Assembly: GCA_017456555.1 (NCBI GenBank) | Contig: JAFTJF010000005.1 | Location: 1-64,000 of the forward strand | Length of the DNA stretch: 64,000 bases | Direction: 5' to 3' | Source: Clostridia bacterium | GTDB taxonomy: Bacteria > Bacillota > Clostridia > TANB77 > CAG-508 | Shown here: piece by piece, positions 11,167 through 46,186 of the stretch | Layout of the letters: every line of letters begins with the position of its first letter | Position numbering within the stretch: position 1 is the stretch's first letter | Position numbers and translations under genes: made by a program | The notes under the pieces: generated by a model | Told to the model about the DNA's origin: nothing | What the model saw: only the letters and a program-made list of their open reading frames with translations | Database searches by the model: none

Positions 11167-11288
11167 AAAATCCCCTACTTTCTTTTAGTTTCTTATTTGC
11201 AAGTATTTCTATTTTCAAGTTTATTATACTCGCATTTATTACATTTTTAAAGTCTTTTCTCTACACTACAAATTCTATCAAAAAATTA

Positions 11289-11326
11289 TTAAGAAAAAAT
11301 AGAGGAATTATTAAGAATTTCTTAAG
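11289..11326. promoter_or_regulatory. In-phase TTAAG half-sites, probable response-regulator operator
   Basis: TTAAG occurs at 11289-11293, 11311-11315 and 11322-11326, that is 22 and then 11 bp apart, so all fall on the same helix face. The first two lie within an identical 12-bp repeat. OmpR-family regulators bind direct repeats with an 11-bp period. The site is between the regulator gene and a divergent plus-strand promoter candidate. Confidence 0.5.
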
Positions 11327-11392
11327 ATTAATAATGATTTGGGGACGAAGACAAAAATCATTATTTATAAAACAAAAAATTTTTAAAATTTT

Positions 11393-11422
11393 TTGAATAT
11401 ATTTTTTCATTTCGCACATAAT
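11393..11422 (+). promoter_or_regulatory. Plus-strand promoter candidate of the putative RNA
   Basis: TTGAAT (11393-11398), an 18-bp spacer and CATAAT (11417-11422) point into the 11430-11940 region, which has no open reading frame. The base composition makes chance matches easy, so this is tentative. Confidence 0.35.
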
Positions 11423-11428
11423 ACTATT

Positions 11429-11945
11429 ATAAAATTTATATTAGCCTAACTTAGAGCTTAATTATTGGTATCTATTAAATAAATAATAAGTAATTACCTT
11501 ATTATTTATTTAATGTGATATTAGTAATTAGGGGTCGAGTAAAAATGTAAAATATTGAAGCTCGAGCTTTAGTATTTTATGTTGGACACGAAGAATATAT
11601 TTTGTGCTTGATAGTTCTATTTCTTTATGATTATTTATTCTTATCTTTAGAATAAATCGCCCGTGATTTGCATATAGTTATTAGGATTTGAAAAGTATAT
11701 TATATATTTGAAGTTATGATTATTCTTTTACTTGAAAGTGGTTATTTTTAATCCCTCGAGGATGAATATAGCTATTTAGAGTGGATTTATAATCTAGTAA
11801 CTGATTAATATATGTGGTATATGGCTTACTTGTATAGTAATATACATTAGGTCAAACTACTATGTGTATTGGTTTTAGCTGAAAGTTAATATAAGTTTTA
11901 TAGTGATAAGAGGCATAAGGATTTACCCTTATGTCTCGATCATTT
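11429..11945 (+). ncRNA. Candidate structured non-coding RNA
   Basis: About 510 nt with no convincing reading frame and a visibly more balanced base composition than other intergenic DNA here. A 15-position self-complementary arm (11549-11578) contains two G-U pairs that pair only in the plus-strand RNA. A terminal 11-bp stem (11910-11937, one G-U) is followed by a short T-rich stretch, consistent with an end. CTCGAG recurs at 11561 and 11754. I do not recognise a known family; RNase P, tmRNA and SRP signature sequences were looked for and are absent. A decayed gene is the main alternative. Confidence 0.4.
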
Positions 11946-11948
11946 TTA

Positions 11949-11985
11949 CAAAAAAATAAAGACCTTTAAGCCAAGGTCTCTATTT
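11949..11985 (-). terminator. Intrinsic terminator of gyrB
   Basis: A 7-bp AGACCTT/AAGGTCT stem followed on the minus strand by a T-rich run lies 30 bp past the gyrB stop codon. Confidence 0.8.
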
Positions 11986-12013
11986 TTCTATATATCTAAT
12001 TAATACTTTTCTA

Positions 12014-17043: not shown

Positions 17044-18390
17044 TTAATTTGAATCTTGGATAATGTTTTTCACACTTTCCACAATTAATTTTGTATTTGT
17101 TTTTTCTTTAATTTCTTTTTCGATTTTATTTACGGCATGCATTACTGTAGTATGATCTCTATTACCAAAATCAGCCCCTATTTTTGGGAATGACATTTGA
17201 GCAACATTTCTACATAAATACATTGCTATTTGACGAGGAAATGCAATATCATTTGATTTTTTTGAAGATATTATATCTTTTTTATCAATATTAAAGTATT
17301 TTGCAACAACCTCTTGTATGTAATCTGAAGATATTACCTTCTCTTTTTGAAGAACAATATCATTTATTGATTTTTCTGCTATTTCAATTGTTATTGGGCT
17401 GTGTGTTAATGATGCATAAGCAACGATTTTATTTAGGGCCCCTTCAAGTTCACGAATATTTGAATCTATTTTTGTGGCAATAACTGATAATATATAATCA
17501 TCAATTATTATTTTATCTGCTTGTACTTTTTTTCTAAGAATTGCTAGACGTGTTTCATAATCAGGCATTGAAATATCAGCAAGTATGCCCCACTCAAATC
17601 TTGATTTTAATCTTTCTTCTAATAATGGAATATCTCTAGGTGGTTTATCACTAGAAATAATAATTTGTTTTCCATTTTGATGAAGAGTATTAAATGTGTG
17701 GAAAAATTCTTCTTGCCCTGTTTTCTTCCCTGCTATAAATTGGATGTCGTCTATTAATAAAACGTCTATATTTCTATATTTATTTCTAAATAATTCATTT
17801 TTATAATTAGCGTCTTTTATTGAGTTTACTAATTCGTTAATAAATTGCTCAGATGTTACGTATAGAATTTTTGTACTAGGATTATTTTTAATAATTTTAT
17901 TTCCTATAGCATGCATTAAGTGTGTTTTTCCAAGACCAACTCCCCCATATATAAATAATGGATTATAAGCTGTAGCTGGTGCTTCTGAAACTGCAAATGC
18001 AGCTGCTTGAGCAAATTTATTATTATTTCCTATTACGAAATTATCAAATGTATATTTTGGATTTAAGAAACTATTACTATAGTTTTCAGTATTTATAAAG
18101 TCAGTTTTTTCTTCTACGAAAACTTGACTTTGGTTATCTTCTGTTTTTTCTATGATTTCTATTTCACAGTTTTTATTTGTAATAAAATTAAAAGTATTAG
18201 AAACTAAATCAAATAAACGTGATTCTATTGCGTCTTTTTGCATTTTTGAAAGAGCTATTAGAACGATTTTATTATCATTTATAGATTGTATTTCTAAATT
18301 TTTTATCCAAGTTGTATATGAAATAGTTGTCATTTCTTCTTTTAAAAGATCTTTAGCTTTTGTAAGTAAGTCGTTTTTATCAGAATACAT
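17044..18390 (-). CDS. dnaA: Chromosomal replication initiator DnaA
   Basis: A 448-residue DnaA. Domain I at the N-terminus (TTISYTTWIKNLEIQ) is followed by a short linker. The AAA+ domain has Walker A GGVGLGKTHLMHAIGN (about residue 149), Walker B VLLIDDIQF and sensor motifs. The C-terminal DNA-binding domain has the signature FGNRDHTTVMHAVNKIE. It binds the boxes flanking its own gene and opens the adjacent DNA. The gene lies between two box clusters, as in Bacillus, and is probably autorepressed through the boxes at 18424-18502 upstream of its start. Confidence 0.98.
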   Translation of the reverse strand: MYSDKNDLLTKAKDLLKEEMTTISYTTWIKNLEIQSINDNKIVLIALSKMQKDAIESRLFDLVSNTFNFITNKNCEIEIIEKTEDNQSQVFVEEKTDFINTENYSNSFLNPKYTFDNFVIGNNNKFAQAAAFAVSEAPATAYNPLFIYGGVGLGKTHLMHAIGNKIIKNNPSTKILYVTSEQFINELVNSIKDANYKNELFRNKYRNIDVLLIDDIQFIAGKKTGQEEFFHTFNTLHQNGKQIIISSDKPPRDIPLLEERLKSRFEWGILADISMPDYETRLAILRKKVQADKIIIDDYILSVIATKIDSNIRELEGALNKIVAYASLTHSPITIEIAEKSINDIVLQKEKVISSDYIQEVVAKYFNIDKKDIISSKKSNDIAFPRQIAMYLCRNVAQMSFPKIGADFGNRDHTTVMHAVNKIEKEIKEKTNTKLIVESVKNIIQDSN

Positions 18391-24843: not shown

Positions 24844-25563
24844 ATGAATATTGAAGAATTTAAAAAAGTATTTTTAGAAGAAGCAAATAAGAATAATATA
24901 AATGTAAATAATACTGAAATTGAAAACTTATATAAATATATGATTGGAATAATAGAATGGAACGATAAAGTTAATGTCACAGCAATCACTGAAGAAAGAT
25001 TGTTTATCGTGAAACATTTTGTTGATTCATTACTTATAAACCACTATTTACAAGGAAAAGAAAAGATTATAGATATAGGAACAGGTGGTGGTTTTCCAGG
25101 AATTCCATTAAAAATTTTGAACTCAGATAAAAAATTTACATTAATAGATTCTGTTAATAAGAAATTAAATGTTATAAGAGATTTGTCAGAAAAGATAGGA
25201 TTAGAAAATTTAGAAATAATTCATACAAGAGCTGAAGATTTAGCAAGCAAGAAAGAATATAGAGAAATGTATGATGTGGCTACAACAAGAGCTGTATCAA
25301 ACCTTTCAACAATATTGGAATATATGCTTCCTTTTATAAAAGTAGGAGGAATAGCAGTTTGTATGAAAGGACCTAATTATAAAGAAGAATTAGAAGAAGC
25401 TAAAAATGCTATAGAGATATTAGGTGGAAAATATGAACATATAGAAACTTTTAATTTAGAAGGTGAAATGGAAAGAAATGTTTTGGTAATTAAGAAAGTG
25501 AAAAACACACCAAATAAATTTCCGAGAGGACAAGGAAAACCACTTAAAGAGCCAATTAGATAA
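24844..25563 (+). CDS. rsmG: 16S rRNA (guanine527-N7)-methyltransferase RsmG
   Basis: A 239-residue SAM-dependent methyltransferase that modifies G527 of 16S rRNA (E. coli numbering). The SAM-binding loop is IDIGTGGGFPGIPLKI (about residues 77-92), and the active-site region has TTRAVSNLSTILEY followed by CMKGPNYKEEL. The C-terminus PNKFPRGQGKPLKEPI is characteristic. Standing between mnmG and parA it keeps the usual origin-region order. Loss of this gene gives low-level streptomycin resistance in other bacteria; here it is intact. Confidence 0.97.
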   Translation: MNIEEFKKVFLEEANKNNINVNNTEIENLYKYMIGIIEWNDKVNVTAITEERLFIVKHFVDSLLINHYLQGKEKIIDIGTGGGFPGIPLKILNSDKKFTLIDSVNKKLNVIRDLSEKIGLENLEIIHTRAEDLASKKEYREMYDVATTRAVSNLSTILEYMLPFIKVGGIAVCMKGPNYKEELEEAKNAIEILGGKYEHIETFNLEGEMERNVLVIKKVKNTPNKFPRGQGKPLKEPIR

Positions 25564-26525: not shown

Positions 26526-27371
26526 ATGGCAGCAAAAAAGACTGGATTAGGAAAAGGATTGGATGCTTTGTTTAGTACTCCAATTGTTGAAGAAGAAGTA
26601 AAACAAGAAGATTTAGTAAAACACTTAAATATCAACGAAATAGAGCCAAATAAGGCTCAAGCTAGAAAAATCTTTGATGATGAAGCAATCGAAGATTTAT
26701 CAAATTCTATTAAAGAATATGGTGTAATTCAACCAATTATAGTAAGTAAAAAAGAAAACTATTATGAAATAATTGCTGGAGAAAGAAGATGGAGAGCTTC
26801 AAAAAGAGCTGGACTTACTGAAATACCAGCAATTGTAAGAGATGATAATGAACAAAGAAATAAAGAAATTTCTTTAATAGAAAATATTCAAAGAGAAGAT
26901 TTAAATCCAATAGAAAAAGCTAGAGGAATTAAACTTTTAATGGATGAATATTCATTAACACAACAACAAGTTGCTGAAAAACTAGGAAAAAGTAGAAGTA
27001 GTATAGCAAATACAGTAAGAATATTAAACTTAGACGAAAGAGTAATAAATTTAGCATTAGAGGGTAAACTAACAGAAGGACATTGCAAATCTTTAATGTC
27101 TATAGACGATCAAGAAAGACAATATAATATGGCTTTATATATTATAGAATCTGGAGATTCTGTAAGAGAAGCTGAAAAGAAGATGAAAGTAAGAAAAAAA
27201 GCAAGTAAAAAGAATGATAAATATATACCAATATATAGAGATATAGAAGATAAATTCCAAGGATTTTTTGGAACTAAAGTTAAACTAGATGCAGGAGAAA
27301 GAAAAGGAAAAATTATTATTCAATATAATTCAAATGACGATTTAGAGAGAATTTTAGGTTTAATAAAATAA
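26526..27371 (+). CDS. parB: Chromosome partitioning CTPase/DNA-binding ParB/Spo0J
   Basis: A 281-residue ParB. The N-terminal ParA-interacting tip is KKTGLGKGLDALF. The CTP-binding ParB domain has YEIIAGERRWRASKRAGL and SLIENIQREDLNPIEKA. The helix-turn-helix region (LTQQQVAEKLGKSRSSIANTVRIL) binds parS, and the C-terminal dimerisation region follows. It is cotranscribed with parA and precedes the DUF4446 gene by 12 bp. Confidence 0.97.
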   Translation: MAAKKTGLGKGLDALFSTPIVEEEVKQEDLVKHLNINEIEPNKAQARKIFDDEAIEDLSNSIKEYGVIQPIIVSKKENYYEIIAGERRWRASKRAGLTEIPAIVRDDNEQRNKEISLIENIQREDLNPIEKARGIKLLMDEYSLTQQQVAEKLGKSRSSIANTVRILNLDERVINLALEGKLTEGHCKSLMSIDDQERQYNMALYIIESGDSVREAEKKMKVRKKASKKNDKYIPIYRDIEDKFQGFFGTKVKLDAGERKGKIIIQYNSNDDLERILGLIK

Positions 27372-27383
27372 GGAAGTGGTATA

Positions 27384-27908
27384 ATGGAAAATCTTTTACA
27401 AGTGTTGAAAACAGAAGATTACCTGGTTATTTCATGTATAGTAAATATTATTTTAGTAATAGTTACTATGATAAATGTAATTATGTTAACTAAAATAAAT
27501 AAGAAGTACATCAAATTTATGAAACAACTTGGAAATGGCTCAAATCTTGATGAAATGCTTAGAGATTATTTAAGAGACGTTAAAGAAATAAAACAAGATA
27601 ACTCAGAAATAAAAGCCTATTACACTAAATTAGATAGTGATATAGCATCTTGTATACAAAAGGTTGGTCTAGTAAGATATAATGCTTTTAGAGATGTTGG
27701 AAGCGATTTAAGCTTTGCTATAGCTTTATTAGATGGAAATGATACAGGAGTTGTTTTAAATGGCTTATATGGATCTGAATCATCTAATATTTATGCAAAA
27801 CCAATAAAAGGTGGAGTTTCTACTTATCAATTATCTGAAGAAGAAAAATATGCATTAGAAATTGCAGAACAAACAAAAAATTTTGTAGCTAAAAATAGAA
27901 AGCAATAA
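27384..27908 (+). CDS. DUF4446 membrane-anchored protein
   Basis: A 174-residue protein with one N-terminal membrane span (about residues 14-36, VISCIVNIILVIVTMINVIML), a helical linker and a compact C-terminal domain with GLVRYNAFRDVGSDLSFAIALLDGNDTGVVLNG. This is the DUF4446 signature, a family of unknown function commonly encoded directly after parB in Clostridia. The domain likely faces the cytoplasm. A GGAAGTGG-type site precedes the ATG. A terminator follows and ends the operon. Confidence 0.9.
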   Translation: MENLLQVLKTEDYLVISCIVNIILVIVTMINVIMLTKINKKYIKFMKQLGNGSNLDEMLRDYLRDVKEIKQDNSEIKAYYTKLDSDIASCIQKVGLVRYNAFRDVGSDLSFAIALLDGNDTGVVLNGLYGSESSNIYAKPIKGGVSTYQLSEEEKYALEIAEQTKNFVAKNRKQ

Positions 27909-27961
27909 AAAATAAGTATTAAAAAAAGAAAAAATTTTAAAAAAATAAATATAAATTTTAA

Positions 27962-27988
27962 AAGAGGCGAGAAGCCTCTTTTTTTTGA
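27962..27988 (+). terminator. Intrinsic terminator after the parAB-DUF4446 operon
   Basis: A 7-bp AAGAGGC/GCCTCTT stem with a 5-nt loop followed by eight T. Confidence 0.85.
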
Positions 27989-28862
27989 TTTAATACGTTT
28001 AATAACAAGTTATACAAAAAACTATATAAAAATGTCTTAAATTTGATTTTAGAAGGTCAAAAATATATATAAATTTTATAGTAAATATATAAAAAAATAT
28101 AAAATAAATTTATAAAAATATGCGAAAGGAAAATTTTTTTGAAAAATTTTTATAGAAAAATATAAAAAAATGGGGTGTGGATAAAAAATTTAAAAAATAT
28201 TTTTTTAATATTTTATTTTTTTAAAATAAAATATTGATAGTAAATTATATAAAAAAATATGTGAAAAATAATAAAATAAAGTTTAAAAAATAAATTTTTA
28301 TTAAAATTAATATAAAAATTTGAAAAAAACATAAAAAAATAATTATTTTTTTATATTTTATTTTTAATAAAAACGATTTTTTTGAAAATGTGATAAAAAA
28401 GTTATAAACATTGGTGTGGTGAAAGTGGCATTAAATAAGGATTTTTTAAAATGTGGAAAAGTTTTTGGGTGATTTCTTGAAGTAAAGGCAGAAATAAAAA
28501 TAGATAAAAAATTGGTTTAAAAAGAATAATAATGTGAAAATTTTCATGAATTTATTAAAAAAATATGAAAATTTAAAAAAATTAAGAAAAAAGAATAAAA
28601 ATAATTAATTTATCAAATGGAAAAATATAGTGAAATCAATGCTTTGGACATTTTTGATAAATAATAAAAAATATTAATTTATTTTTTCTTTTTTTACAAA
28701 TAAGGGGAGATATTTGTGAAAAAACATCAAAAAATATTTTTTTATTTAAATTTTTTTAAATTATTTATACAATTTTTTTGGGAAATAAATAAAAAATAAT
28801 TAAAAATAAAAAAATTTTACTCTTTTTTTAAAATGTAAAATTTTTTAAAAAAACAAAAATTA

Positions 28863-28888
28863 AAAACCTTGATTTATCAAGGTTTTTT
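28863..28888 (+). terminator. Isolated terminator-like hairpin in the desert
   Basis: A perfect 10-bp AAAACCTTGA/TCAAGGTTTT stem with a 4-nt loop and T-run, with no recognisable gene upstream for 900 bp. It is nearly symmetrical and could work on both strands. Confidence 0.5.
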
Positions 28889-29031
28889 GAAATTGTGGAA
28901 AAAATTTTCTTAAAAATAAAATAAAAACGAATAAATTTAATAAAAAATTAAAAAAATACTATAAAAAATATGTAAAATTAAAAAAATACTAATTAAAAAT
29001 AAAAGAATTTTGAAAAATAAAAAAAAATTTG

Positions 29032-29061
29032 TTGACAAATCAATTAAGAATATGCTAATAT
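29032..29061 (+). promoter_or_regulatory. tRNA-Ser promoter
   Basis: TTGACA (29032-29037), 18-bp spacer, TAATAT (29056-29061) preceded by TGC, about 30 bp before the first tRNA. Confidence 0.6.
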
Positions 29062-29089
29062 ATATGTGTTGTTGATGAAACAGCCAAGT

Positions 29090-29181
<92 letters not shown>

Positions 29182-29184
29182 AGA

Positions 29185-29222
29185 AATGGAAGCTGAATCA
29201 CTTATTTTTAGCTTCCATTTTT
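29185..29222 (+). terminator. Terminator-like hairpin between the tRNA-Ser genes
   Basis: A perfect 10-bp AATGGAAGCT/AGCTTCCATT stem followed by T residues, directly after the first tRNA. Confidence 0.7.
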
Positions 29223-29250
29223 AAATATAAAAAAGAAATTTAACTATTTT

Positions 29251-29343
29251 GGAGATTTACCCAAGTGGTTGAAGGGGACGGTTTGCTAAACCGTTAGGGT
29301 TGCGTAAGTGGCCGCGAGGGTTCAAATCCCTCAATCTCCGCCA
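29251..29343 (+). tRNA. tRNA-Ser(GCU)
   Basis: A 93-nt type II tRNA with encoded CCA. The acceptor stem GGAGATT pairs with AATCTCC, anticodon loop TTGCTAA gives anticodon GCT, and the long variable arm and T-arm (GAGGGTTCAAATCCCTC) fit serine. With the UGA tRNA this marks the position where serS often lies in related genomes; serS itself is not here. Confidence 0.97.
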
Positions 29344-29345
29344 GA

Positions 29346-29373
29346 AGACAGCTTATAAGGCTGTCTTTTTTTG
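29346..29373 (+). terminator. Intrinsic terminator after the second tRNA-Ser
   Basis: A perfect 7-bp AGACAGC/GCTGTCT stem with a 7-nt loop and seven T. Confidence 0.85.
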
Positions 29374-32300
29374 TTGCTTAAAATGAAAAAACATGCGAAA
29401 TATTTTTTTAAAATGATAAAAAAATGCTAAAAAACTATGTGGAAAAGTGATAAAAGTATCTAAAAATCAAGGCTTTTTAGAAAAAACAATTTTTAGGGTG
29501 TTAATAACTTTTTTAATCAAAAATGGGGGATTTTTCTCAAAAAATTTAAGCAATTTTTTGGGGTAAAAAATCGAAAAAAATTATTTTCTATTTTTTTATA
29601 AAAAATCAAAAAAATGATGAAATTTTATAAAAAAAGGTTAAAAAAAGCATATTTTTTACTAAAAAACATGAAAAAAATTGAGAAAAAAGGTTTAAAAATT
29701 GAAATTAAAATTAAAAAAATAAAAGAAAAATTAAAATCAAAATTGGGAAATGCTTTAATTTACAAGGTTTTAAAAAAATAAATAAAAATTTTATATTTTT
29801 AAGAAAATTAAAATTGAACTAAAATTTTTTAAAAAATGCTATTTTGGTCTAAAAATAAGCTTAAATAATAAAGAAAAACTAAAAAAAATGAATTAAAAAT
29901 TGTTCTTAAGGGGTATATTTTTAAAGAAAATGAAAGTATCAAAAATGGTATAAACGGCTTGCAGAAAGAGATTGGAGAAAAGTGAGAAAAAAATTTCAAA
30001 AAAAATAGTTCATTTAAAAATAGAAAAAAACAAAAAAATAATTATTTTTTAGAGATGTTTTTCTGATTTTTTAATAAAAATTAAAGAATTTTATAAAAAA
30101 ACATAAATTTTAATTAAAATTTTACTAAGGAAATAAGCAATATTGAATTAATTTTTTTTAGAAAATTGAAAAAATATTTTTTAATTAAAAAGATAAAATG
30201 CAGTATTTGCAGGAGATTGATAGAATTGAAGGAACATTAAAAAAATAAAAAAATCAAATTTTGAAAAAAATAAAAATCAAATTTTTATAGGGAAATATAG
30301 GAAAAAACGATAAAAAAATTAAAAATTATTTAATCTTTTTTTATTATTTTGCATTTTTTAACAAAGATCTTAAACTAAGTTACAAGTATCTTACAACAAA
30401 TAAGCCTCTAAAATCAAAAATGAGGCGTTTTTTATTTAAAAATGACAAATTATACTAAGAAATTATAAAAAAAGCTTAAAATTTACTCTTAAAAAATACG
30501 TTTTTTAAAAAATCGTCAAAAAATTAATAATTTTTGAGAAAAATAACTTTTTGAAAAAGTAAAAATGGAATTAAAAATAGATAAAAAAGTATTTATAAAA
30601 CACTTCTTTTTATTTAAAAAAAATTGAAATGACCTTTAAAAAATAGAATAAAATACTTAAAAATTATGAAATAAAAAAACAACTTAAAACACTGGGAAAT
30701 AAGGACTCGAGAGATTTAAAAATAGGCTTAAATTTTCGGAAGAAAATGTTGGATTTCTAAAAGAGAGTTTTAGAATTTAGAAAAATTCATATATAAAAAA
30801 GTAAATTCCTAATTATCAAAAAAAGTTATTCTGTAAAATTTTTAAAAAACGATTTTTTATTTTTTTATTTTAATTAAAATAAAAAATTTTTTGAGTTATT
30901 TTTAAAAATGTTTTAAGGAAAATTAATTAGAAAATTTCTCGAAAAAATATAAAACGCAGAAAATCAAGCTTTTTGACGTTTTTTGTCAAAAAGTAGAATT
31001 AAAAAAATTTGAAAATAAAATAATAAAAATCAAGAAAAGTAAAATTAAAAATTTAAAGAAAATCAAAATACAGATGAGTAGAAAAAATAATAAAATTTGA
31101 CTTTAAAGCATATTAAAAAAATGGAGTGAAATTAAATAAAAAGAGTAAAAAAAGAAACCTGAAACAACAGGGAAATAGAGAGAAGAAAGAATTTTTGACT
31201 GTTTTAAAAATAGGGAACATAAAGTGTAAAAAGTTGTTTTTTTGAAAGTAAATTTTGCAAGAATTTTATTCAAATTATTATCAAAAAATTTTAAAAAATG
31301 AATAGAAAAAAAATAGAAAATTTAAAAAAATTTAACTTCAAAAATAAATTAAAAAATTATTTTTTATGAATAAAATGTTCTAAGAAAACAAATAAAAAAA
31401 TCAATTTGATAAACACAAAAACCGAAAACACTTGATAATAGAGTAAACTAGAGAAAATTACTATTTAAAATGCTGAAAAAAATTGGTGAAATATAGTGAA
31501 GGAAAATTTAAAAAAAAATAAGAAAAGTAATTTAATAAAATTCAGGTAAATTAGACCCCAAAATTGCATAAAAAAGTCTAAAAAAAAGTGATTTTTTGAG
31601 TATAAAAAAGTAATCTAAAAAAGTTTTGAAAACCTTGGGAAATAAGAGAAAAACAGAACTAAAAAATAGAAAAAATAAACACAAAAATGCATCAAAAAAA
31701 TAGTTGAATTTTTGATCAAATTTTAAGTACATTTTTTGATAAAAATTATCGAAAAAAAGTGATTTTTATATTTATTTTTTTTCATTGAATAATAAATAAA
31801 TATAAAAATAATTTAAAATATTAAAAAAATAATGTTGATTAAATAGAAGAGTGTTTTAAGCGAAAAAAGTTAAAACACTTGAAACTGTAAGGATGTGAGA
31901 TAAATTTGCTTTTAAAATGTAAAAAAATGATTAACTTTCTAAATTAGAAAAAAATAGAAACTAAAAATCAATAAAATTAGTTAAAAAATGACTTAAAAAT
32001 AGCCGAAAAAATTAATGATTTTTGTGTAGATAAAAATTAGGTTAAACCCTTGGGAAATAAGGAATTTATAAAACTAAAAAATTACATTTTTTTCGCACAA
32101 AAAATATGACTTTTTTATGCCCAAAAAGAAGCAAAAAAATGAATAAAAATTCCTTAAAAAAATAAGAAATATTTTTTAAAAACTAACTTTTTTTATTTAA
32201 AAATTTTATTTTTATAGATATTTTATGGATATAAAATATAAAATAAATTTAAATTTAAATTATTTTTTTTATAAATAAAATACTGAAGTGATAAAAAACG

Positions 32301-33873
32301 TTGATAAATAAGCGTTTTATAGAAATTTATTAATTTTTACTAAATTATAGGAGAAGAAGTGTAGTTTTATAGATTTTTATAAAAATTTAAAGTAATTTTT
32401 TTGCATAATTAAATTGTTTTTGTGTGACGAAAAATGTCAAAAAAACTTTATTTTTTTTATTATAAAAAACAGCATAAAAAAACAGGTGAAACGCATGGGA
32501 AATATTGGTTTACAAATTCTCAAAAAATATTTTTTTTGACGAGAAAAAATCATTTTAATTTATTTAAAAAATTATTGAAAAACGATAATGAGTTTTGGCA
32601 AAATTTGATGACAAAAATACAGTTTTTTTGAAATTGTTTTTCTTTTAAATTTTAAAAATATATAATTATTTTGGAAAAAATAAATGTAGCTAATGCTTAA
32701 TTTTTAATGAAAATATTAGAAAAGTGCGGTAAATAGGGGGTTGCTCGAAATCTTATTATTTTTTACTTCTAAAGTAAATATAAAAAAACAAGATCAAAAA
32801 ATTAAATTTTTAAAGAAAATGCTACCAGAAAATTCTGATGTTTTTTTCGAGATAGAAGACTAAAAAATGAAAAATTTTAAATTTTTTTTGAAATTTAGTA
32901 CTATATTTTAATTCACTTTTTTTATTTTAAAAAATGAATTTTTATAATTGATTAAAGCATGGGATTTAAGGGTTATAGAGAAAATAATTTTTTTAAAAAA
33001 TATATAGAAAAATACAAAAAAATTATAAGAAAAAGCAGATTTAATTAATACTGCAATTAAAAAATTTTTTGATGAAAATTTTTAAATTTTCAGAATTTAA
33101 AATTGTAAAAAAACATAAATTAAAAAATTAAAATAATTTTTTTTAATGAATTTTTTATAAAAAAGGACTAAAAAAGGTTAAAATTAATAAAATGTTTAAA
33201 TAGACTTTTTTTCTGAAAAATCAAAACATAAAAGATATTTAAAATAAAAATATATTGAACATAAGATGTTTCAGGGGTTTCAAGGAAAACGAACTAAAAT
33301 TTAGACTTTTTCAATAAAATAAGAAGATAAAAGAAATTAAAAATTTTGAGAAAAGCATTTTTTTGGATTTTTTTATACAATTTTTTATTCTGAATTAATA
33401 TAAAATAATATGTATTGCCAAAAAAGCAAAGTCCAAAATTTTGAAAAAATATTTTAAAAACGAATAATTTTATTCAAAAAATAGAAGATCAAAACGACAG
33501 GGAAGAAATGCTTATAAGAATTTTTTGAAAATTTTTTAAATGAAAGAGGGAAGATTTACATAAGTAAAAAATAAATAAACAAATCTTACTAAGTAAAGAA
33601 AATGGAAAAATACGTTTTTTAATTTCAAAAAACTATAAAATTTTTAAAAATAAAGTTGAAAAAAATCAAAATTTGAAAAATAAAAAATTTTTTATTTTTT
33701 ATAAATTAATTATAAAACGCAAACTATTTTATTTATATAGTTTATTCTTTTATAAAGTTCTCAAAAATAAAAATGAAATTAAATTTTATAAAAAATGCAC
33801 TATTATTTTCACTTTAAAATTCAAAAATAAAAGTAAGAAAAGGTGCTATTAAAAACTATATATATAATAAAAA

Positions 33874-33915
33874 CAGACGTCTGAAAATCGATTTTAAACC
33901 GTTTTTTGACGTCTG
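33874..33915 (-). terminator. Intrinsic terminator of the dehydratase/activase gene
   Basis: A perfect CAGACGTC/GACGTCTG outer stem (33874-33881 with 33908-33915) with an inner AT stem. On the minus strand it is followed by a T-run, 58 bp past the stop codon at 33973. Confidence 0.8.
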
Positions 33916-33972
33916 CTTATAAACTAATTCGTTTTAAATAAAAAATTCATTAAATTTGATTTAAAAAAGTAA

Positions 33973-36900
33973 TTATTTTTTTGAAACTTTTTCTTCTTCT
34001 TTAACAACATTTTCTATTTCGATTGCTTTTTTTGATTGTTTTTTTCTTTTTAAATTATCTTTAGCAACTGTTGTTAATAATTTTATTCTATTTGTTTGAT
34101 TTGTTTCACTTGCTCCAGGATCATAATCAATAGGAGAGATGTTTGCATAAGGATATTTTTCTCTTATTGATTTTATAACACCTTTTCCAACAACGTGGTT
34201 TGGTAAGCATGCAAATGGTTGAACACAAACAATATTTGGAATTCCATGTTCAATATATTCAATCATTTCTGCAGTTAAGAACCAACCTTCACCAGTTTGA
34301 TTTCCTATTGATAAAATATCTTTTACTTTACTTTCAAGTTCAAAAATATTTGCAGGAGGCAAGTAACCTTTTTTAGATTTCGCTAATTCTTTTCCTAAAT
34401 CTCTTTCAATCATTTCTATTAATTCGATTACTACTTTAAAGATTTTAGCTTTTTTCTTGTCTGTTTTTAATAGTGCATAATTTGTTGTTTTGTGTGTACA
34501 AACAAATTTTATAAATCCCATAAAGTCCGGAGATATAACTTCTGCACCTTCTTGTTCTAATACTTTTATAACTTCATTATTTCCAAATGGATGATATTTA
34601 ATTAATACTTCACCAACGATACCAACTTTTGGTTTCTCAACAGAAGTATCTAATTCAATTTTTTCAAAATCAGCAATCATGTCTTTTACACTTTGCTTAA
34701 ATTGTCTTGGTGTTGCTTTTGCTGAAAGTTTTTTACATTTTTCAAGCCATTCTTCATATAATTTTTCTGTTTCACCTTTGTTTACTTCATAAGGCCTATT
34801 TTTTAATAATAATTTTTGTAAAAGGTCACCATAGAATACTGCTCTAATTAAATTGATTGCCATTGGTACTGTTATTTTAAATCCTGTTGATTTTTCCATA
34901 CCAACAACATTAAATGAAATAACAGGAACATGTCCAAATCCAGCATCTTTTAAAGCTTTTCTAATAAATCCAATATAGTTAGTGGCCCTGCAACCACCAC
35001 CAGTTTGTGACATTATTAAAGCAGTTTTATTAGTGTCATATTCACCAGATTGAAGTGCTTCAATAAATTGTCCAGTTGTTAAAATTGCAGGATAACAAGC
35101 ATCATTATTAACATATCTTAAACCTGTTTCAACAGTTTTTTCACTGCAATCTCTTAACAATTTTACTTTATATCCAAGTGCAGTTACACCTGCTTCAAGC
35201 AATTCAAAATGTATTGGAATCATTTGTGGTATTAAAATTGTATAACCATCATCTTTCATTTCTTTTGTAAAAGGAACTTTTTGTACTTGATAATTTCCAA
35301 GTTCTTGTTGTTCTTGATTTTCTTCAAGTTTTTCAGCTTCTTTTTGAGCAATACGTTTGTTCATACTTGCTAAAAGTGATCTAATACGTATACGAATAGC
35401 ACCTAAATTGTTTATTTCGTCTATTTTTATTAATGTATACATGTTATTATAGCTTTTTAAAATTTCTTCAACTTGGTCTGTTGTTACTGCGTCAACACCA
35501 CATCCGAATGAGTTTAATTGAATCATTTCTAAGAAATCGTGTTTTCCAACAAATTCAGCTGCAGCATAAAGTCTTGAGTGATATACCCATTGGTCAACAA
35601 CTCTTAATCTTTGACTTACACCTTTTTCTGGGTCACATATACTATCTTCAGATAATACACATAATCCTAAACTTGTTATTAATGTATCTATACCATGGTT
35701 GATTTCTGGGTCAACATGATATGGACGACCAGCTAAAACAATACCTCTTAAATTATTTTCTTTAATATATTTAATTGTTTCTTTACCTTTTTTACGTACA
35801 TCTTTTTTGAAGTTTTGATATTCTTGTTCTGCGGCTTCGGCAGCTTCAAGTAATTCTTTTTTAGTAAATTTATAGTCTTTAAAATTCTCATCTTCATAAA
35901 GTACTTGTACTAAATTTTTAAGGTTATCAATAGGTAAGAATGGGTTTAAATACTTAATTTCAGGAGTTCTTAATTCTTCAATATTATTTTTTATAACTTC
36001 TGAATAAGAAATAACAATAGGGCAATTATAGTGATTATCTGATTGCTCATATTCTTTTCTATTGTAAGGGATACAAGGATAAAAGATTGTTTTTATTCCT
36101 TGTTTTAATAAACTCATAATATGACCATGAGCAAGTTTTGCAGGATAGCAAACTGACTCAGATGGCATTGATTCCATACCTTTTTCATAAGTTTTTCTAT
36201 TTGATTTTTCAGAAATTATAACTCTAAATCCTAATTTTGTTAGGAATGTAAACCAGAATGGATAGTCCTCATACATGTTTAAAACCCTAGGGATACCGAT
36301 TGTTCCACGTTTAGCATCAGCCTCAGAAAGCGGTTGGTAACTGAATAATCTGTCATATTTATACTTATAAATGTTAGGTAAATCTTTTTTATCGGAATCT
36401 TGATTTCCAGCTCCTTTTTCACATCTATTTCCAGAAATGAATTTTTTACCATTTTCGAAAGTATTTATTGTTAATAAACAATTATTTTCACACCCTTTAC
36501 AACGAACGTGAGAAATTTTAATATTTAAATTATCTAATTCTTCAGTTTTAAATATTGTTGATCTATAAGCCATATCTAAGTTTGCATTATATTGTTCTTG
36601 TGCTAAAAGTGCAACTCCATATGCACCCATAAGTCCAGCTATATCTGGTCTTACAACATTTCTTCCTACTACTAATTCGAAGGCTCTTAAAACAGCATCA
36701 TTATAGAAAGTACCACCTTGAACAACAATATTTTTTCCAAGTGTTTTTACATCTCTAACTTTCATAACTTTTTGAATAGCATTTTTTATTATTGAATATG
36801 ATAAACCACTTGAAATATCACCAACAGAATAACCTTCTTTTTGAGCTTGTTTGATTTTTGAGTTCATAAATACTGTACATCTAGAACCTAAATCAACAGG

Positions 36901-38328
36901 TGCCTTTGATTTTAAAGCTTCTTCAACAAATTGTTCTATAGTTAAATCTAAGCTTTTTGCAAAAGTTTCTAAGAAAGAACCACATCCTGAAGAACAAGCT
37001 TCATTAAGCATTATATTATCAATTGAGTTATTTTTTAATTTTATGTATTTCATATCTTGGCCACCAATATCAATGATACTAGTAACTTTTGGTAAGAATT
37101 TTTTTGCAGCTGTATAGTGAGCAATTGTTTCAATCTCGTTTAAATCAACGTTTAAAGCAGTTTGAATTAATTTTTCACCATAACCAGTTACACCACTATA
37201 ACGAATAACAACTTTTTCTGGTAATGCTTTATATAATTTTTTTAACATTGATATTACACTTTTCAAAGGGTTACCTTTGTTGTTTTCATATAGGGAATAA
37301 AGAAGTGCGCCGTCTTTATCTATTAAGACTAATTTTGTTGTTGTAGAACCTGCATCTATACCAACAAAAGCGTCTCCTTCATAAGTTTTTAAGTCATTTC
37401 TTTTTACTTTATCTTTATCATGTCTTTCTTTAAATTCATTGTAATCTTCTTTTGTTGCAAATAGAGGATCCAAAGTTTTTCCTTCAACAAATTTTGCTTT
37501 TTTAAATCCTTTTAATCTATTTTTTAATTCACTAGATTCGATTTTCTTTGTTTCTACTGATGCATATGCAGCACCTGTTGCAACTAGAAGATGGGCATTT
37601 TCAGGAACAATAATTTTTTCATCAGTTAAATTTAAAGTTTCAATAAATCTTTTTCTTAATTCTGATAAATAATTTAATGGTCCACCTAAAAATGCAACTT
37701 TTCCTTTTATTGGTCTACCTTGAGCTAATCCACTTATAGTTTGGTTAACTACAGCTTGGAATATTGAAGCTGCAATATCTTCTTTTCTAGCACCTTCATT
37801 TAATAAAGGTTGAATATCAGTTTTTGCAAAAACTCCACAACGAGAAGCAATAGGGTAGATAGTTTCATAAGTTTTTGAAAGTTCATTTAGACCATCTGTA
37901 TCTGTATTTAAAAGAGAAGCCATTTGGTCTAAGAATGCACCTGTACCACCAGCACATGTTCCATTCATTCTTTGTTCAATGAACTTATCAAAATATATTA
38001 TTTTAGCGTCTTCACCACCAAGTTCAATAACAACATCAGTTTGTGGAATTAGTTTTTCTACAGCTGATTTACAAGCTATAACTTCTTGGATAAAACTTAC
38101 ATCTAAGATTTTAGCAATTTCGATTGCTCCAGAACCTGTTAATGACATTGTAAAAGTATTGTCTGGATAATCTTTTACAAGTTTTGATAAGACATTATAT
38201 AATGTAGTTTTTGTATCTGAAAAATGTCTTTCATAATTTGAATATACTACATTTAATTCTTTATCTAATATAACGATTTTTACGGTTGTTGAACCGACAT
38301 CAATTCCAACATGTAATAACTTACTCAT
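33973..38328 (-). CDS. Large 2-hydroxyacyl-CoA dehydratase-type protein with two activase domains
   Basis: A 1451-residue cytoplasmic protein. Two ASKHA-type activase domains of the BcrAD/BadFG/HgdC kind occupy about residues 5-270 (GIDVGSTTVKIVILD; Cys in NGTCAGGTGAFLDQ) and 320-590 (GIDAGSTTTKLVLID; Cys in ACSSGCGSFLE). Such Cys hold a [4Fe-4S] cluster at the dimer interface. A cysteine patch (CKGCENNC, about 610) and a DUF2229-like segment (GIPRVLNMYEDYPFW) follow. Further HgdB/dehydratase-like parts contain AGRPYHVDPEINHG and QTGGGCRATNYIGF. Such fusions are widespread in anaerobic Firmicutes, and their substrate is not established. It is probably oxygen-sensitive. The ribosome site (38368-38361) is 33 nt from the ATG across a hairpin (38341-38357). 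Confidence 0.88.
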   Translation of the reverse strand: MSKLLHVGIDVGSTTVKIVILDKELNVVYSNYERHFSDTKTTLYNVLSKLVKDYPDNTFTMSLTGSGAIEIAKILDVSFIQEVIACKSAVEKLIPQTDVVIELGGEDAKIIYFDKFIEQRMNGTCAGGTGAFLDQMASLLNTDTDGLNELSKTYETIYPIASRCGVFAKTDIQPLLNEGARKEDIAASIFQAVVNQTISGLAQGRPIKGKVAFLGGPLNYLSELRKRFIETLNLTDEKIIVPENAHLLVATGAAYASVETKKIESSELKNRLKGFKKAKFVEGKTLDPLFATKEDYNEFKERHDKDKVKRNDLKTYEGDAFVGIDAGSTTTKLVLIDKDGALLYSLYENNKGNPLKSVISMLKKLYKALPEKVVIRYSGVTGYGEKLIQTALNVDLNEIETIAHYTAAKKFLPKVTSIIDIGGQDMKYIKLKNNSIDNIMLNEACSSGCGSFLETFAKSLDLTIEQFVEEALKSKAPVDLGSRCTVFMNSKIKQAQKEGYSVGDISSGLSYSIIKNAIQKVMKVRDVKTLGKNIVVQGGTFYNDAVLRAFELVVGRNVVRPDIAGLMGAYGVALLAQEQYNANLDMAYRSTIFKTEELDNLNIKISHVRCKGCENNCLLTINTFENGKKFISGNRCEKGAGNQDSDKKDLPNIYKYKYDRLFSYQPLSEADAKRGTIGIPRVLNMYEDYPFWFTFLTKLGFRVIISEKSNRKTYEKGMESMPSESVCYPAKLAHGHIMSLLKQGIKTIFYPCIPYNRKEYEQSDNHYNCPIVISYSEVIKNNIEELRTPEIKYLNPFLPIDNLKNLVQVLYEDENFKDYKFTKKELLEAAEAAEQEYQNFKKDVRKKGKETIKYIKENNLRGIVLAGRPYHVDPEINHGIDTLITSLGLCVLSEDSICDPEKGVSQRLRVVDQWVYHSRLYAAAEFVGKHDFLEMIQLNSFGCGVDAVTTDQVEEILKSYNNMYTLIKIDEINNLGAIRIRIRSLLASMNKRIAQKEAEKLEENQEQQELGNYQVQKVPFTKEMKDDGYTILIPQMIPIHFELLEAGVTALGYKVKLLRDCSEKTVETGLRYVNNDACYPAILTTGQFIEALQSGEYDTNKTALIMSQTGGGCRATNYIGFIRKALKDAGFGHVPVISFNVVGMEKSTGFKITVPMAINLIRAVFYGDLLQKLLLKNRPYEVNKGETEKLYEEWLEKCKKLSAKATPRQFKQSVKDMIADFEKIELDTSVEKPKVGIVGEVLIKYHPFGNNEVIKVLEQEGAEVISPDFMGFIKFVCTHKTTNYALLKTDKKKAKIFKVVIELIEMIERDLGKELAKSKKGYLPPANIFELESKVKDILSIGNQTGEGWFLTAEMIEYIEHGIPNIVCVQPFACLPNHVVGKGVIKSIREKYPYANISPIDYDPGASETNQTNRIKLLTTVAKDNLKRKKQSKKAIEIENVVKEEEKVSKK

Positions 38329-45195: not shown

Positions 45196-45957
45196 ATGGA
45201 ATTTTTTGATTCACATTCTCATTATAATGATGAGAAATATGATACAGATAGAAATGAATTAATTAAAGCAATATATAATGAAGGAATAACAAAAACAGTA
45301 TGTGTTGGGTACAATGTGGAAAAGAGCCAAGAAGCTTTAAAAATAGCCAAAGAAAACCACTTTATGTTTGCAACTTGTGGAATTTCACCCAACGATATTG
45401 AAGAATATGTGGATAACTCATTAGAAAAAATAGAAGAAATTGCTAAAGATGGTAAAATAGTGGCAATTGGAGAGATAGGACTTGATTATTATTGGAATAA
45501 AGATAATAAAGAAGAACAAAAAGAATTGTTTATAAAGCAAATTGAAATAGCCAATAGAGTTAATAAACCAATAGTAATTCATACAAGAGATGCTGCAGTA
45601 GATACAATTGAAATATTAAAGGAACATCCAGTAAATAAGAAAGGTATATTTCATTGTTGTCCACTAAATCAAGAACTTATAAAAGAAGGGTTAAAACTAG
45701 GATTTTATATATCATTTAGTGGTAATATAACTTTTAAAAATGCAAAATCAGAACCTTGTGTGTCTTTGGTACCATTAGATAAATTATTAATTGAAACAGA
45801 TTGTCCATATTTATCACCAGAGCCATATAGAGGTAAAAGAAATGATTCAAGAAATGTTAAACTAGTAGCTGCTAAAGTGGCTGAAATAAAGGGACTATCA
45901 TTAGAAGAAGTGGCCAAGATAACTTATGAAAATGCAAATAAAATTTTTGAAATATAA
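45196..45957 (+). CDS. TatD-family metal-dependent hydrolase/DNase
   Basis: A 253-residue TIM-barrel hydrolase. The metal ligands appear as FDSHSHYND at the N-terminus, IGEIGLDYYW (Glu), VIHTRDA, FHCC and LIETDCPYLSP. The family contains 3'-5' exonucleases and D-aminoacyl-tRNA-type hydrolases, so the substrate is not certain. The ribosome site AAGGAGAG lies inside the end of acpS. It ends with a terminator and closes the operon. Confidence 0.94.
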   Translation: MEFFDSHSHYNDEKYDTDRNELIKAIYNEGITKTVCVGYNVEKSQEALKIAKENHFMFATCGISPNDIEEYVDNSLEKIEEIAKDGKIVAIGEIGLDYYWNKDNKEEQKELFIKQIEIANRVNKPIVIHTRDAAVDTIEILKEHPVNKKGIFHCCPLNQELIKEGLKLGFYISFSGNITFKNAKSEPCVSLVPLDKLLIETDCPYLSPEPYRGKRNDSRNVKLVAAKVAEIKGLSLEEVAKITYENANKIFEI

Positions 45958-45961
45958 CATA

Positions 45962-46002
45962 AACGACTTATAGTACATTAAGTATTATAGGTCGTTTTTT
46001 AT
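45962..46002 (+). terminator. Intrinsic terminator after tatD
   Basis: An 11-bp AACGACTTATA/TATAGGTCGTT stem (one G-T pair) followed by six T. Confidence 0.8.
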
Positions 46003-46145
46003 GTTATATAGTTTATAAAAAATAAAATGTCAAGAAAAATTTTAAAAAAATTTAAAGAAAATTTTGGATAAAAAAATACTCGAAAGTATTTATTTCGTAG
46101 AAAAAGTCAAAAAAATGTGGAAAAAAGTAATAAAAACTTAACAAT

Positions 46146-46186
46146 CTTGTGGAAAAACTCCCTAAAGGTTTTTCCGTAGCGAGTTT
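46146..46186. repeat. CTTGTGGAAAA...TTTTCCGTAG hairpin element, copy 2
   Basis: A GGAAAAAC/GTTTTTCC stem (46151-46158 with 46168-46175) preceded by CTTGT and followed by CGTAGCGAGTT, as in copy 1 at 16931-16972. An alternative AAACTC/GAGTTT pairing overlaps the first stem. It lies about 120 bp before the dockerin-protein gene, in its probable leader. The rest of the 337-bp gap (45958-46294) is AT-rich with a small AAATACT/AGTATTT hairpin at 46074-46091. Confidence 0.4.

What the first reader, a model, noticed from the sequence alone, without database searches (positions are those of the whole stretch)
27989..33860. 6-kb AT-rich gene desert with a quasi-periodic degenerate motif
This stretch beside the parAB block and two tRNA-Ser genes has no convincing gene in a genome that is otherwise tightly packed. 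By eye, a motif near AAAACACTTGGGAAATAAGG recurs with steps of roughly 173-313 bp, averaging about 235. Three copies share the GGGAAATAAG core exactly (30694, 31637, 32052), and others are close (31170, 32497, 33500). A softer GAGA...TTTTAAAATAG-like tail follows several copies. It may be a decayed tandem array, an array of binding sites near the origin, or eroded repeated genes. The G-run stands out in DNA that is almost only A and T.
Basis: seen in the sequence. Interest (0 to 1): 0.8.

Follow-up and report, generated by a model that had tools for sequence, protein, structure and literature searches.

The report
Origin-side bacterial satellite with conserved box
Next to the replication origin of a gut Clostridia bacterium lies a gene-poor, AT-rich stretch that turns out to be a fast-changing array carrying a short DNA signal again and again; relatives keep the same signal at the same place, which suggests a landmark that the cell uses to handle its origin.

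Summary
The desert is real and its motif is not chance. It (27909-33972, 16% GC) lies between parAB-DUF4446 and a 1451-aa activase gene, about 10 kb from dnaA. Beyond the two tRNA-Ser genes, all seven exact GGGAAAT copies lie on one strand, 404-545 bp apart (P 4e-5); the step is about 450 bp, not 235. A matrix built only from other species finds five window copies (200 shuffles: mean 0.46, maximum 3).

Seventeen of 53 genus genomes carry a composite box: this core flanked, about 65-73 bp away on each side, by a dyad ATTGNC-N5-GNCAA and by TTACATAA or a near reverse complement. The clearest arrays repeat every 1,200-1,300 bp. Three genomes have boxes on the other side of oriC, again pointing away from it. 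The nearest relative's desert edges are no more alike than shuffled DNA, so box conservation suggests selection.

It is not parS, a known RNA or coding, and gave no phage or plasmid match. Best reading: an origin-proximal, centromere-like array of protein-binding sites. Against it: the window copies are degenerate, several basal relatives lack the box, DnaA-box-like words are enriched too, and no binding protein is known. Function is inferred.

The parts
27909..33972 (.). AT-rich gene desert between DUF4446 and the activase gene
29090..29181 (+). tRNA-Ser (tga) inside the desert
29251..29343 (+). tRNA-Ser (gct) inside the desert
28780..28786 (+). exact GGGAAAT upstream of the tRNA genes
29745..29751 (+). 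core copy, exact GGGAAAT
30290..30296 (+). core copy, exact GGGAAAT
30694..30703 (+). core copy, exact GGGAAATAAG
31170..31176 (+). core copy, GGGAAAT; best single window match of model R1 (12.5 bits, E 6e-4, 31117-31239)
31637..31646 (+). core copy, exact GGGAAATAAG
32052..32061 (+). core copy, exact GGGAAATAAG
32497..32503 (+). core copy, exact GGGAAAT
32961..32967 (+). core copy, variant GGGATTT
33414..33430 (.). dyad-like site (ATTGCC-N5-GCAAA), the only full regex match to the dyad in the window desert
33500..33506 (+). weak core copy (GGGAAGA), 86 bp from the dyad-like site and 56 bp before TTACATAA
33556..33563 (.). TTACATAA flanking site
31443..31449 (+). GTAAACT flanking-site word, not at the usual distance from a core
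28176..28184 (+). DnaA-box-like TGTGGATAA
28452..28460 (+). DnaA-box-like TGTGGAAAA
28894..28902 (+). DnaA-box-like TGTGGAAAA
29438..29446 (+). DnaA-box-like TGTGGAAAA
25001..25016 (.). parS-like site (2 mismatches to the recalled consensus) in rsmG
26526..27371 (+). parB
27384..27908 (+). DUF4446 gene, origin-side border
33973..38328 (-). BcrAD_BadFG / DUF2229 activase gene, far border

Best explanation
The desert is the degenerate window copy of an origin-proximal array of composite protein-binding sites kept by a large part of one Clostridia genus. Each site has a polar core (TGGGAAATAAG) near the middle of about 150 bp of AT-rich DNA, a dyad (ATTGNC-N5-GNCAA) about 65 bp to one side, and TTACATAA or its near reverse complement about 67-73 bp to the other. 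Shown: the boxes, their geometry, regular spacing in the clearest arrays, their place between tRNA-Ser and the activase gene (in three species also or only on the gyrB side of oriC), their usual orientation away from oriC, no match elsewhere in the searched genomes at the cut-offs used, and spacer DNA at shuffle level between the window and its nearest relative. Inferred: one or more sequence-specific proteins bind the dyad and the flanking site, wrap or bridge the AT-rich stretch in a fixed geometry, and many such complexes over several kb anchor, compact or position the new origin next to ParB-parS, a centromere-like landmark that works as RacA-ram or RefZ-RBM sites do in Bacillus. Arrays turn over by tandem duplication, which explains the different unit lengths. 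I put the structural claim at about 0.85; the confidence below is for structure and function together.
For: R1, built from 12 boxes of two species, gives 34 matches in 10 of 53 genus genomes; the 22 that are not training sequences lie in 8 genomes, 16 at the same place and 6 on the gyrB side of the origin. Spacing is even: 1279-1328 bp in G058, 1190-1212 in G014, 404-545 in the window. In 13 window-type desert sequences, dyad and GTAAACT found independently lie 110-150 bp apart in that order 17 times, against 0.76 by random placement (maximum 6 in 20,000). Both box types are symmetric about the core. In the nearest relative (activase fragment 92%, DUF4446 89% identical) the desert edges are 58.5% and 57.8% identical; shuffles give 55.1% (maximum 58.5) and 53.4% (maximum 59.0), and without the activase-side end it is 55.8% against 56.0%. 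No RNA structure or covariation.
Against: The window copies are weak: neither model finds them with default filters, and with filters off the best score is 12.5 bits; R2 also lays 4 long + matches where there is no box, and R1 2 long - matches. Only 17 of 53 genomes match a model, several by one box, and 7 of them through R2, whose matches are nearly all its own training sequences. Genomes outside the window's part of the tree have the AT-rich desert and tandem copies without the box, so the box is not needed across the genus. Two composites in G023 point the other way. Within arrays the box is only modestly more alike than the spacer (0.614 and 0.564; 0.572 and 0.542). No binding protein was found and no experiment exists. 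Strict filters scored only 51-54 candidates per genome.
Confidence: 0.4

Rival explanations
1. Replication-control locus: the desert titrates or recharges DnaA through DnaA-box-like sites (TGTGGATAA, TGTGGAAAA), as E. coli datA or Bacillus DnaA-box clusters do (both recalled), and the GGGAAAT box is an accessory site.
For: TGTGGAT 20 against 3.6 expected and TGTGGAA 30 against 7.0 over 34 desert sequences, TGTGGAA never on the other strand. Window sites at 28176, 28452, 28894, 29438. G014 has one TGTGGAAA in each of its six units.
Against: The box itself holds no such word. In the window the sites lie in and just after the tRNA part, not beside the cores. Within 64 kb there is another cluster at 45315-46148. 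Some box arrays (G058 right array, G060 right array) have no exact TGTGGAAA or TGTGGATA.
Confidence: 0.2
2. Neutral satellite: the place is prone to tandem duplication near the origin, and the shared box is only residual descent of repeats.
For: G055 has nearly identical tandem copies; G015, G009 and G048 have tandem copies of other lengths without the box.
Against: Spacer is at shuffle level even against the nearest relative, while the blocks are shared between two clades, and the fixed distances recur.
Confidence: 0.2
3. Array of noncoding RNA genes, one per unit.
For: Strand polarity and an A- and G-rich top strand.
Against: RNAalifold finds 0 pairs in 12 boxes. The inner dyad pair is complementary in 15 of 36 and 5 of 20 sites. 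Promoter-like sites are not enriched in the window desert (40 found, shuffles 47.1). Rfam matches only tRNA in the window and six relatives.
Confidence: 0.1
4. Relic of a mobile or site-specific recombination element: the flanking site TWAWGTAAACT resembles the XerD arm (TTATGTAAACT) of B. subtilis dif.
For: Similarity to the printed B. subtilis dif (PMC3025954, passages). The place is next to tRNA genes, and one relative has a decayed tRNA-Ser fragment near its repeats (by eye).
Against: No XerC arm beside it (by eye). No dif of that form within 3 mismatches in six genomes. No match of a G058 unit in phages or plasmids, nor of the window part in plasmids. The exact G058 core pattern has no match in viral contigs.
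Confidence: 0.1

Closest known systems
RacA and its ram sites (Bacillus subtilis)
   Same: DNA sites dense near the origin that serve as centromere-like elements for polar anchoring (PMC6593407, passages).
   Different: ram sites are also spread over the chromosome; here kb-scale units at one or two fixed places. No RacA homologue was searched for.
RefZ and its RBM sites (Bacillus)
   Same: Nearly palindromic sites on both arms and near oriC, positions conserved over a genus (PMC6657595, passages).
   Different: Five single sites at larger distances, no satellite array; the RBM sequence was not compared.
parS clusters of ParABS
   Same: Origin-proximal, beside parAB, palindromic part.
   Different: The box does not contain the parS palindrome; a parS-like site is in rsmG.
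DnaA-box clusters, E. coli datA (recalled)
   Same: Noncoding, DnaA-box-like words, near tRNA genes.
   Different: The composite box is not a DnaA box; kb-scale repetition.
Eukaryotic satellite centromeres and yeast point centromeres (recalled)
   Same: Fast-changing AT-rich repeats with a conserved protein-binding box; a short multi-part element with fixed distances.
   Different: Analogy of form only; no homology and no binding protein shown.

Membership tests
parS (ParB site) | Palindrome TGTTTCACGTGAAACA within about 2 mismatches | tested here: not met
   In the window genome the two-mismatch search hits only 25001-25016 in rsmG, none in the desert; 5 of 7 genomes have a site, G014 and G058 none
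DnaA-box cluster | Several boxes TTATCCACA or close variants within about 1 kb | tested here: inconclusive
   One TGTGGATAA and three TGTGGAAAA in 28176-29446; words enriched over the genus; not part of the composite box
RacA ram sites | Binding by RacA | not testable with these tools
   No binding data; RacA was not searched for
RefZ RBM sites | RBM sequence and a RefZ protein | not tested
   Only passages on their position were read
dif site | XerC arm, 6-bp centre, XerD arm near the terminus | tested here: not met
   Only a XerD-arm-like half near the origin; no dif-like 28-mer within 3 mismatches in 6 of 6 genomes
Known noncoding RNA | Rfam match or covarying structure | tested here: not met
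Tandem repeat (satellite) array | Units repeated head to tail with a regular period | tested here: met
   G058 and G014 and, by eye, G055; in the window only the boxes are periodic and self-comparison shows no clear unit

The most novel reading that the evidence does not exclude
A bacterial counterpart of a satellite centromere: AT-rich tandem units that change as fast as eukaryotic satellite DNA, each carrying a fixed-geometry three-part box for an unknown protein, placed on one or both sides of oriC next to parABS, and marking, anchoring or pairing the origins.
Probability: 0.25. Interest if true: 0.9.

Novelty: categorically new. Interest (0 to 1): 0.7.

Why it matters
Small bacterial genomes are tightly packed, so several kilobases of mostly noncoding DNA kept at one place over a genus need a reason. 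A conserved box in otherwise saturated repeat DNA beside the origin would be a new kind of chromosome landmark, and would let the centromere-satellite question (conserved box, fast-changing repeat) be asked in bacteria. The box is a concrete bait for finding the protein. Of 44 genomes in which DUF4446 was placed, only 14 have the activase gene on the same contig, so the stretch often breaks assemblies and may be missed elsewhere. Six literature searches (listings, plus passages of three papers) showed no such array; 'categorically new' rests on that limited basis. If it proves to be an anchoring array like ram or RBM sites, it would be a new variant of a known kind.

Tried and rejected
Start-codon idea: in G058 the core reads ATGGGAAATAAG behind a purine-rich stretch, and one copy is an open 17-codon frame (by eye). 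Rejected because other copies lose the ATG.

parS, RNA genes and a dif or Xer site were rejected or kept as weak rivals. A Chi-like or KOPS-like genome-wide signal was rejected: GGGAAAT occurs 172 times in the window genome, about one per 9.7 kb, against 8 in the 6.06-kb desert. Spo0A-type binding to the dyad: TTGNC resembles the recalled 0A box and the window genome has six Spo0A_C matches, but 19 of 20 genomes of other families have Spo0A_C matches too, so it is only a lead.

Self-BLAST with lax scoring inflates matches between AT-rich stretches; only clear differences between diagonals were used. In one search single hits below about 55 bits are AT background. The repeat finder gave mostly chance matches. 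Under order 1, two AT words rank above GGGAAAT.

Rows dropped: one search used 35 of 36 boxes. One search used 34 of 36 desert sequences (G018b and G011 left out). In one search other genes lying in deserts were left in (G016 was cut); one search masked long frames and the result held. In one search, G016 and G047 are partly training. In one search G065 rests on one fragment and is misplaced, and no support values were printed.

The first attempt to hand in this report was not filed; it had broken list fields. Checking it led to (shuffle control for the spacer identity, masking of frames) and to corrections: G021 has boxes only on the gyrB side; R1 and R2 long matches off the boxes are now told; the Spo0A_C comparison is now given as counts.
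Full report
What the window is. It is contig C2:1-64000 of a 1.67-Mb, 13-contig genome, 88.5% complete. Named relatives are 'Clostridia bacterium' metagenome assemblies, some with gut sample names. dnaA (17044-18390, -), dnaN, a recF-like gene and gyrB lie to the left; yidC, rsmG, parA, parB and DUF4446 to the right (Pfam; other gene names in that block are from gene order). GC skew turns positive at about 18 kb, so the desert begins about 10 kb from dnaA and its + strand is the leading strand.

The observation. The desert 27909-33972 has 16.3% GC against 28.0% in its flanks and no gene but two tRNA-Ser genes. GGGAAATAAG is exact at the three stated places; the genome has four exact copies. 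GGGAAA occurs 8 times on the + strand of the desert and not on the other. A first test over the whole window with one mismatch was not significant. Two sharper tests were. The seven exact GGGAAAT beyond the tRNAs are spaced 404-545 bp, CV 0.11, reached by 8 of 200,000 random placements. A matrix built from 35 boxes of other species hit that part of the window five times at 9 bits or more, where 200 shuffles averaged 0.46 with a maximum of 3, and never on the other strand. The step is about 450 bp; 235 bp is not supported.

The relatives. parB, DUF4446 and activase searches led to the same place in the genus. Fourteen genomes have DUF4446 and the activase gene on one contig; the intervals are 2.1-9.5 kb with 12.8-22.1% GC, flanks 25.4-37.8%. 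Some of these intervals hold genes (for example G011, G016 and G058; long frames also in G040, G062 and others). G058 shows six copies of a box spaced 1279-1328 bp. A profile of these found six copies in G014, evenly spaced near 1,200 bp. The joint alignment A1 (12 boxes) shows TACATAA, about 67 bp on YATGGGAAATAAG, about 44 bp on TAWACATAA, and about 65 bp from the core the dyad ATTGTC-WAAAA-GACAAT.

Genome-wide test. Model R1 from A1 gave 34 matches in 10 of 53 genus genomes at E 1e-4 or better. Twelve are training sequences. The other 22 are in 8 genomes: 16 lie between DUF4446 or tRNA-Ser and the activase gene, and 6 on the gyrB side of the origin (three in G060, two in G021, one in G049). 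G060 has both arrays on one contig and G049 one box on each side; in G021 only the gyrB side was seen, and DUF4446 was not found there. Boxes on both sides point away from the origin. With over 40 genomes the tool used stricter filters and scored 51 candidates per genome, so absences are lower bounds. Several matches sit near contig ends.

A second architecture. Over 34 desert sequences of 30 genomes (109.6 kb) GGGAAAT is the top 7-mer under an order-2 background (49 against 10.6 expected; 19 of 30 genomes), and GTAAACT (24 against 5.5), TACATAA (61 against 24.8) and TTGACAA (40 against 13.1) are enriched too. With long frames masked, GGGAAAT is 43 against 8.7 in 19 genomes, 1 on the other strand. 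In the window's part of the genus the order is dyad, about 65 bp, core, about 72 bp, TWAWGTAAACTWA. Dyad and GTAAACT were located independently in 13 desert sequences; 17 pairs lie 110-150 bp apart in that order, against 0.76 by random placement (maximum 6 in 20,000). The flanking site is close to the reverse complement of TTACATAA. So in both types the core is near the middle, with the dyad on one side and this site on the other; the sides are exchanged while the core keeps its direction. Model R2 from 20 such composites of 7 genomes gave 21 matches in those 7 of 53 genomes, all in the desert; only two are not training sequences, and these, in G023, are inverted. Together R1 and R2 cover 17 of 53 genomes.

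The window copies. They are weak members. R1 and R2 with default filters do not hit the window. With filters off, R1 has six + matches of 100 nt or more, and these fall on the six boxes 30694, 31170, 31637, 32052, 32497 and 32961; it also has two - matches of that length elsewhere. R2 has nine + matches of 100 nt or more, five on the last five of these boxes and four elsewhere. The best score is 12.5 bits. A three-block scan (matrices from other genomes) gives 9 window sites of 14 bits or more against 1.71 in 100 shuffles (maximum 5), and 2 on the other strand against 1.51; most rest on the core. G019, also untrained, gives 7 sites of 17 or more against 0.32 in 50 shuffles (maximum 3), 1 on the other strand.

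Selection. G039 is the nearest relative by DUF4446 (89%) and has a 92% identical activase fragment. Its desert edges are 58.5% (397 of 679) and 57.8% (190 of 329) identical to the window. Shuffled controls give 55.1% (maximum 58.5) and 53.4% (maximum 59.0); leaving out the activase-side end, which holds a conserved hairpin, it is 55.8% against 56.0%. So the spacer is at or near chance level. Boxes shared across clades in this background argue for selection. Within one array the contrast is smaller (box 0.614, spacer 0.564 in G058; 0.572 and 0.542 in G014; shuffled 0.477 and 0.511), since copies also share descent. A tree of parB, DUF4446 and activase fragments puts type I genomes together and type II genomes in the neighbouring group with the window, with box-less G015, G009, G011, G040 and G048 outside (no support values). 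Exceptions: G062 and G007 lie inside these groups without a model match, many others were not assembled across the place, and G065 is misplaced for lack of data.

Turnover. G055 has nearly identical copies 1535-1558 bp apart, judged from their flanks. G015, G009 and G048 have tandem copies of other lengths without the box. The place seems to amplify DNA repeatedly, and the box is what two groups keep.

What it is not. It is not parS: the parS-like site of this genome is in rsmG. It is not a known or structured RNA, and promoter-like sites are not in excess. It is not coding. A G058 unit has no match in the phage or plasmid collections and the window part none in plasmids; the exact G058 core pattern has none in viral contigs. 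Nineteen loci of other genera and families gave no R1 or R2 match (eight of these loci reach only about 1.5 kb beyond parB). The flanking site resembles the XerD arm of B. subtilis dif as printed in PMC3025954 (passages), but no dif of that form was found in six genomes.

How it may work. Fixed distances of about 65-73 bp on each side of a core, a dyad, polarity away from the origin and multiplicity next to ParB-parS fit a nucleoprotein array that handles the origin. RacA-ram and RefZ-RBM are the nearest known cases in location (passages of PMC6593407 and PMC6657595). DnaA-box-like words are enriched too, so a part in initiation control is the strongest rival. No protein is known; the gyrB-side arrays of G060 and G021 adjoin a UvrD-type helicase gene and an AraC-type regulator gene, which may be chance.

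Verdict. The structure is well supported in relatives and moderately in the window; its function is a reasoned guess.

Noticed in passing
window 45315-46156: A second cluster of DnaA-box-like words (TGTGGAAAA at 45315, 46116, 46148; TGTGGATAA at 45408).
   Followed up: no
window 11167-12013: A noncoding stretch of about 850 bp beside gyrB whose GC skew is near zero amid strongly negative values.
   Followed up: no
L155 (G055), GGGAAAT at desert positions 923, 2481, 4037, 5572: Nearly identical tandem copies about 1.55 kb apart at the same place: a young satellite.
   Followed up: partly
G006:C11:38586-39662, G065:C53:985-2061, G004:C5:2724-3791: Activase homologues read across 5, 6 and 1 in-frame TAA: broken or read otherwise.
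   Followed up: no
L091 near 14111: A decayed tRNA-Ser-like fragment at the head of a tandem array with a unit of roughly 268 bp in G015 (by eye).
   Followed up: no
L127:9929-13481 and L128:5262-11483: The gyrB-side arrays of G060 and G021 adjoin a UvrD-type helicase with zinc ribbons (in two pieces in G060) and an AraC-type HTH gene.
   Followed up: partly
G000 whole genome: Six Spo0A_C matches (five over the cut-off) but none of the strength of full Spo0A seen in most relatives; the assembly is 88.5% complete.
   Followed up: no
L085:4413-5813 and L090:4010-8889: Genes inside the same interval in relatives: a DUF4143 ATPase in G016, GLUG-motif and AbiEii-like genes in G011, where the tRNA-Ser pair is inverted.
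   Followed up: no
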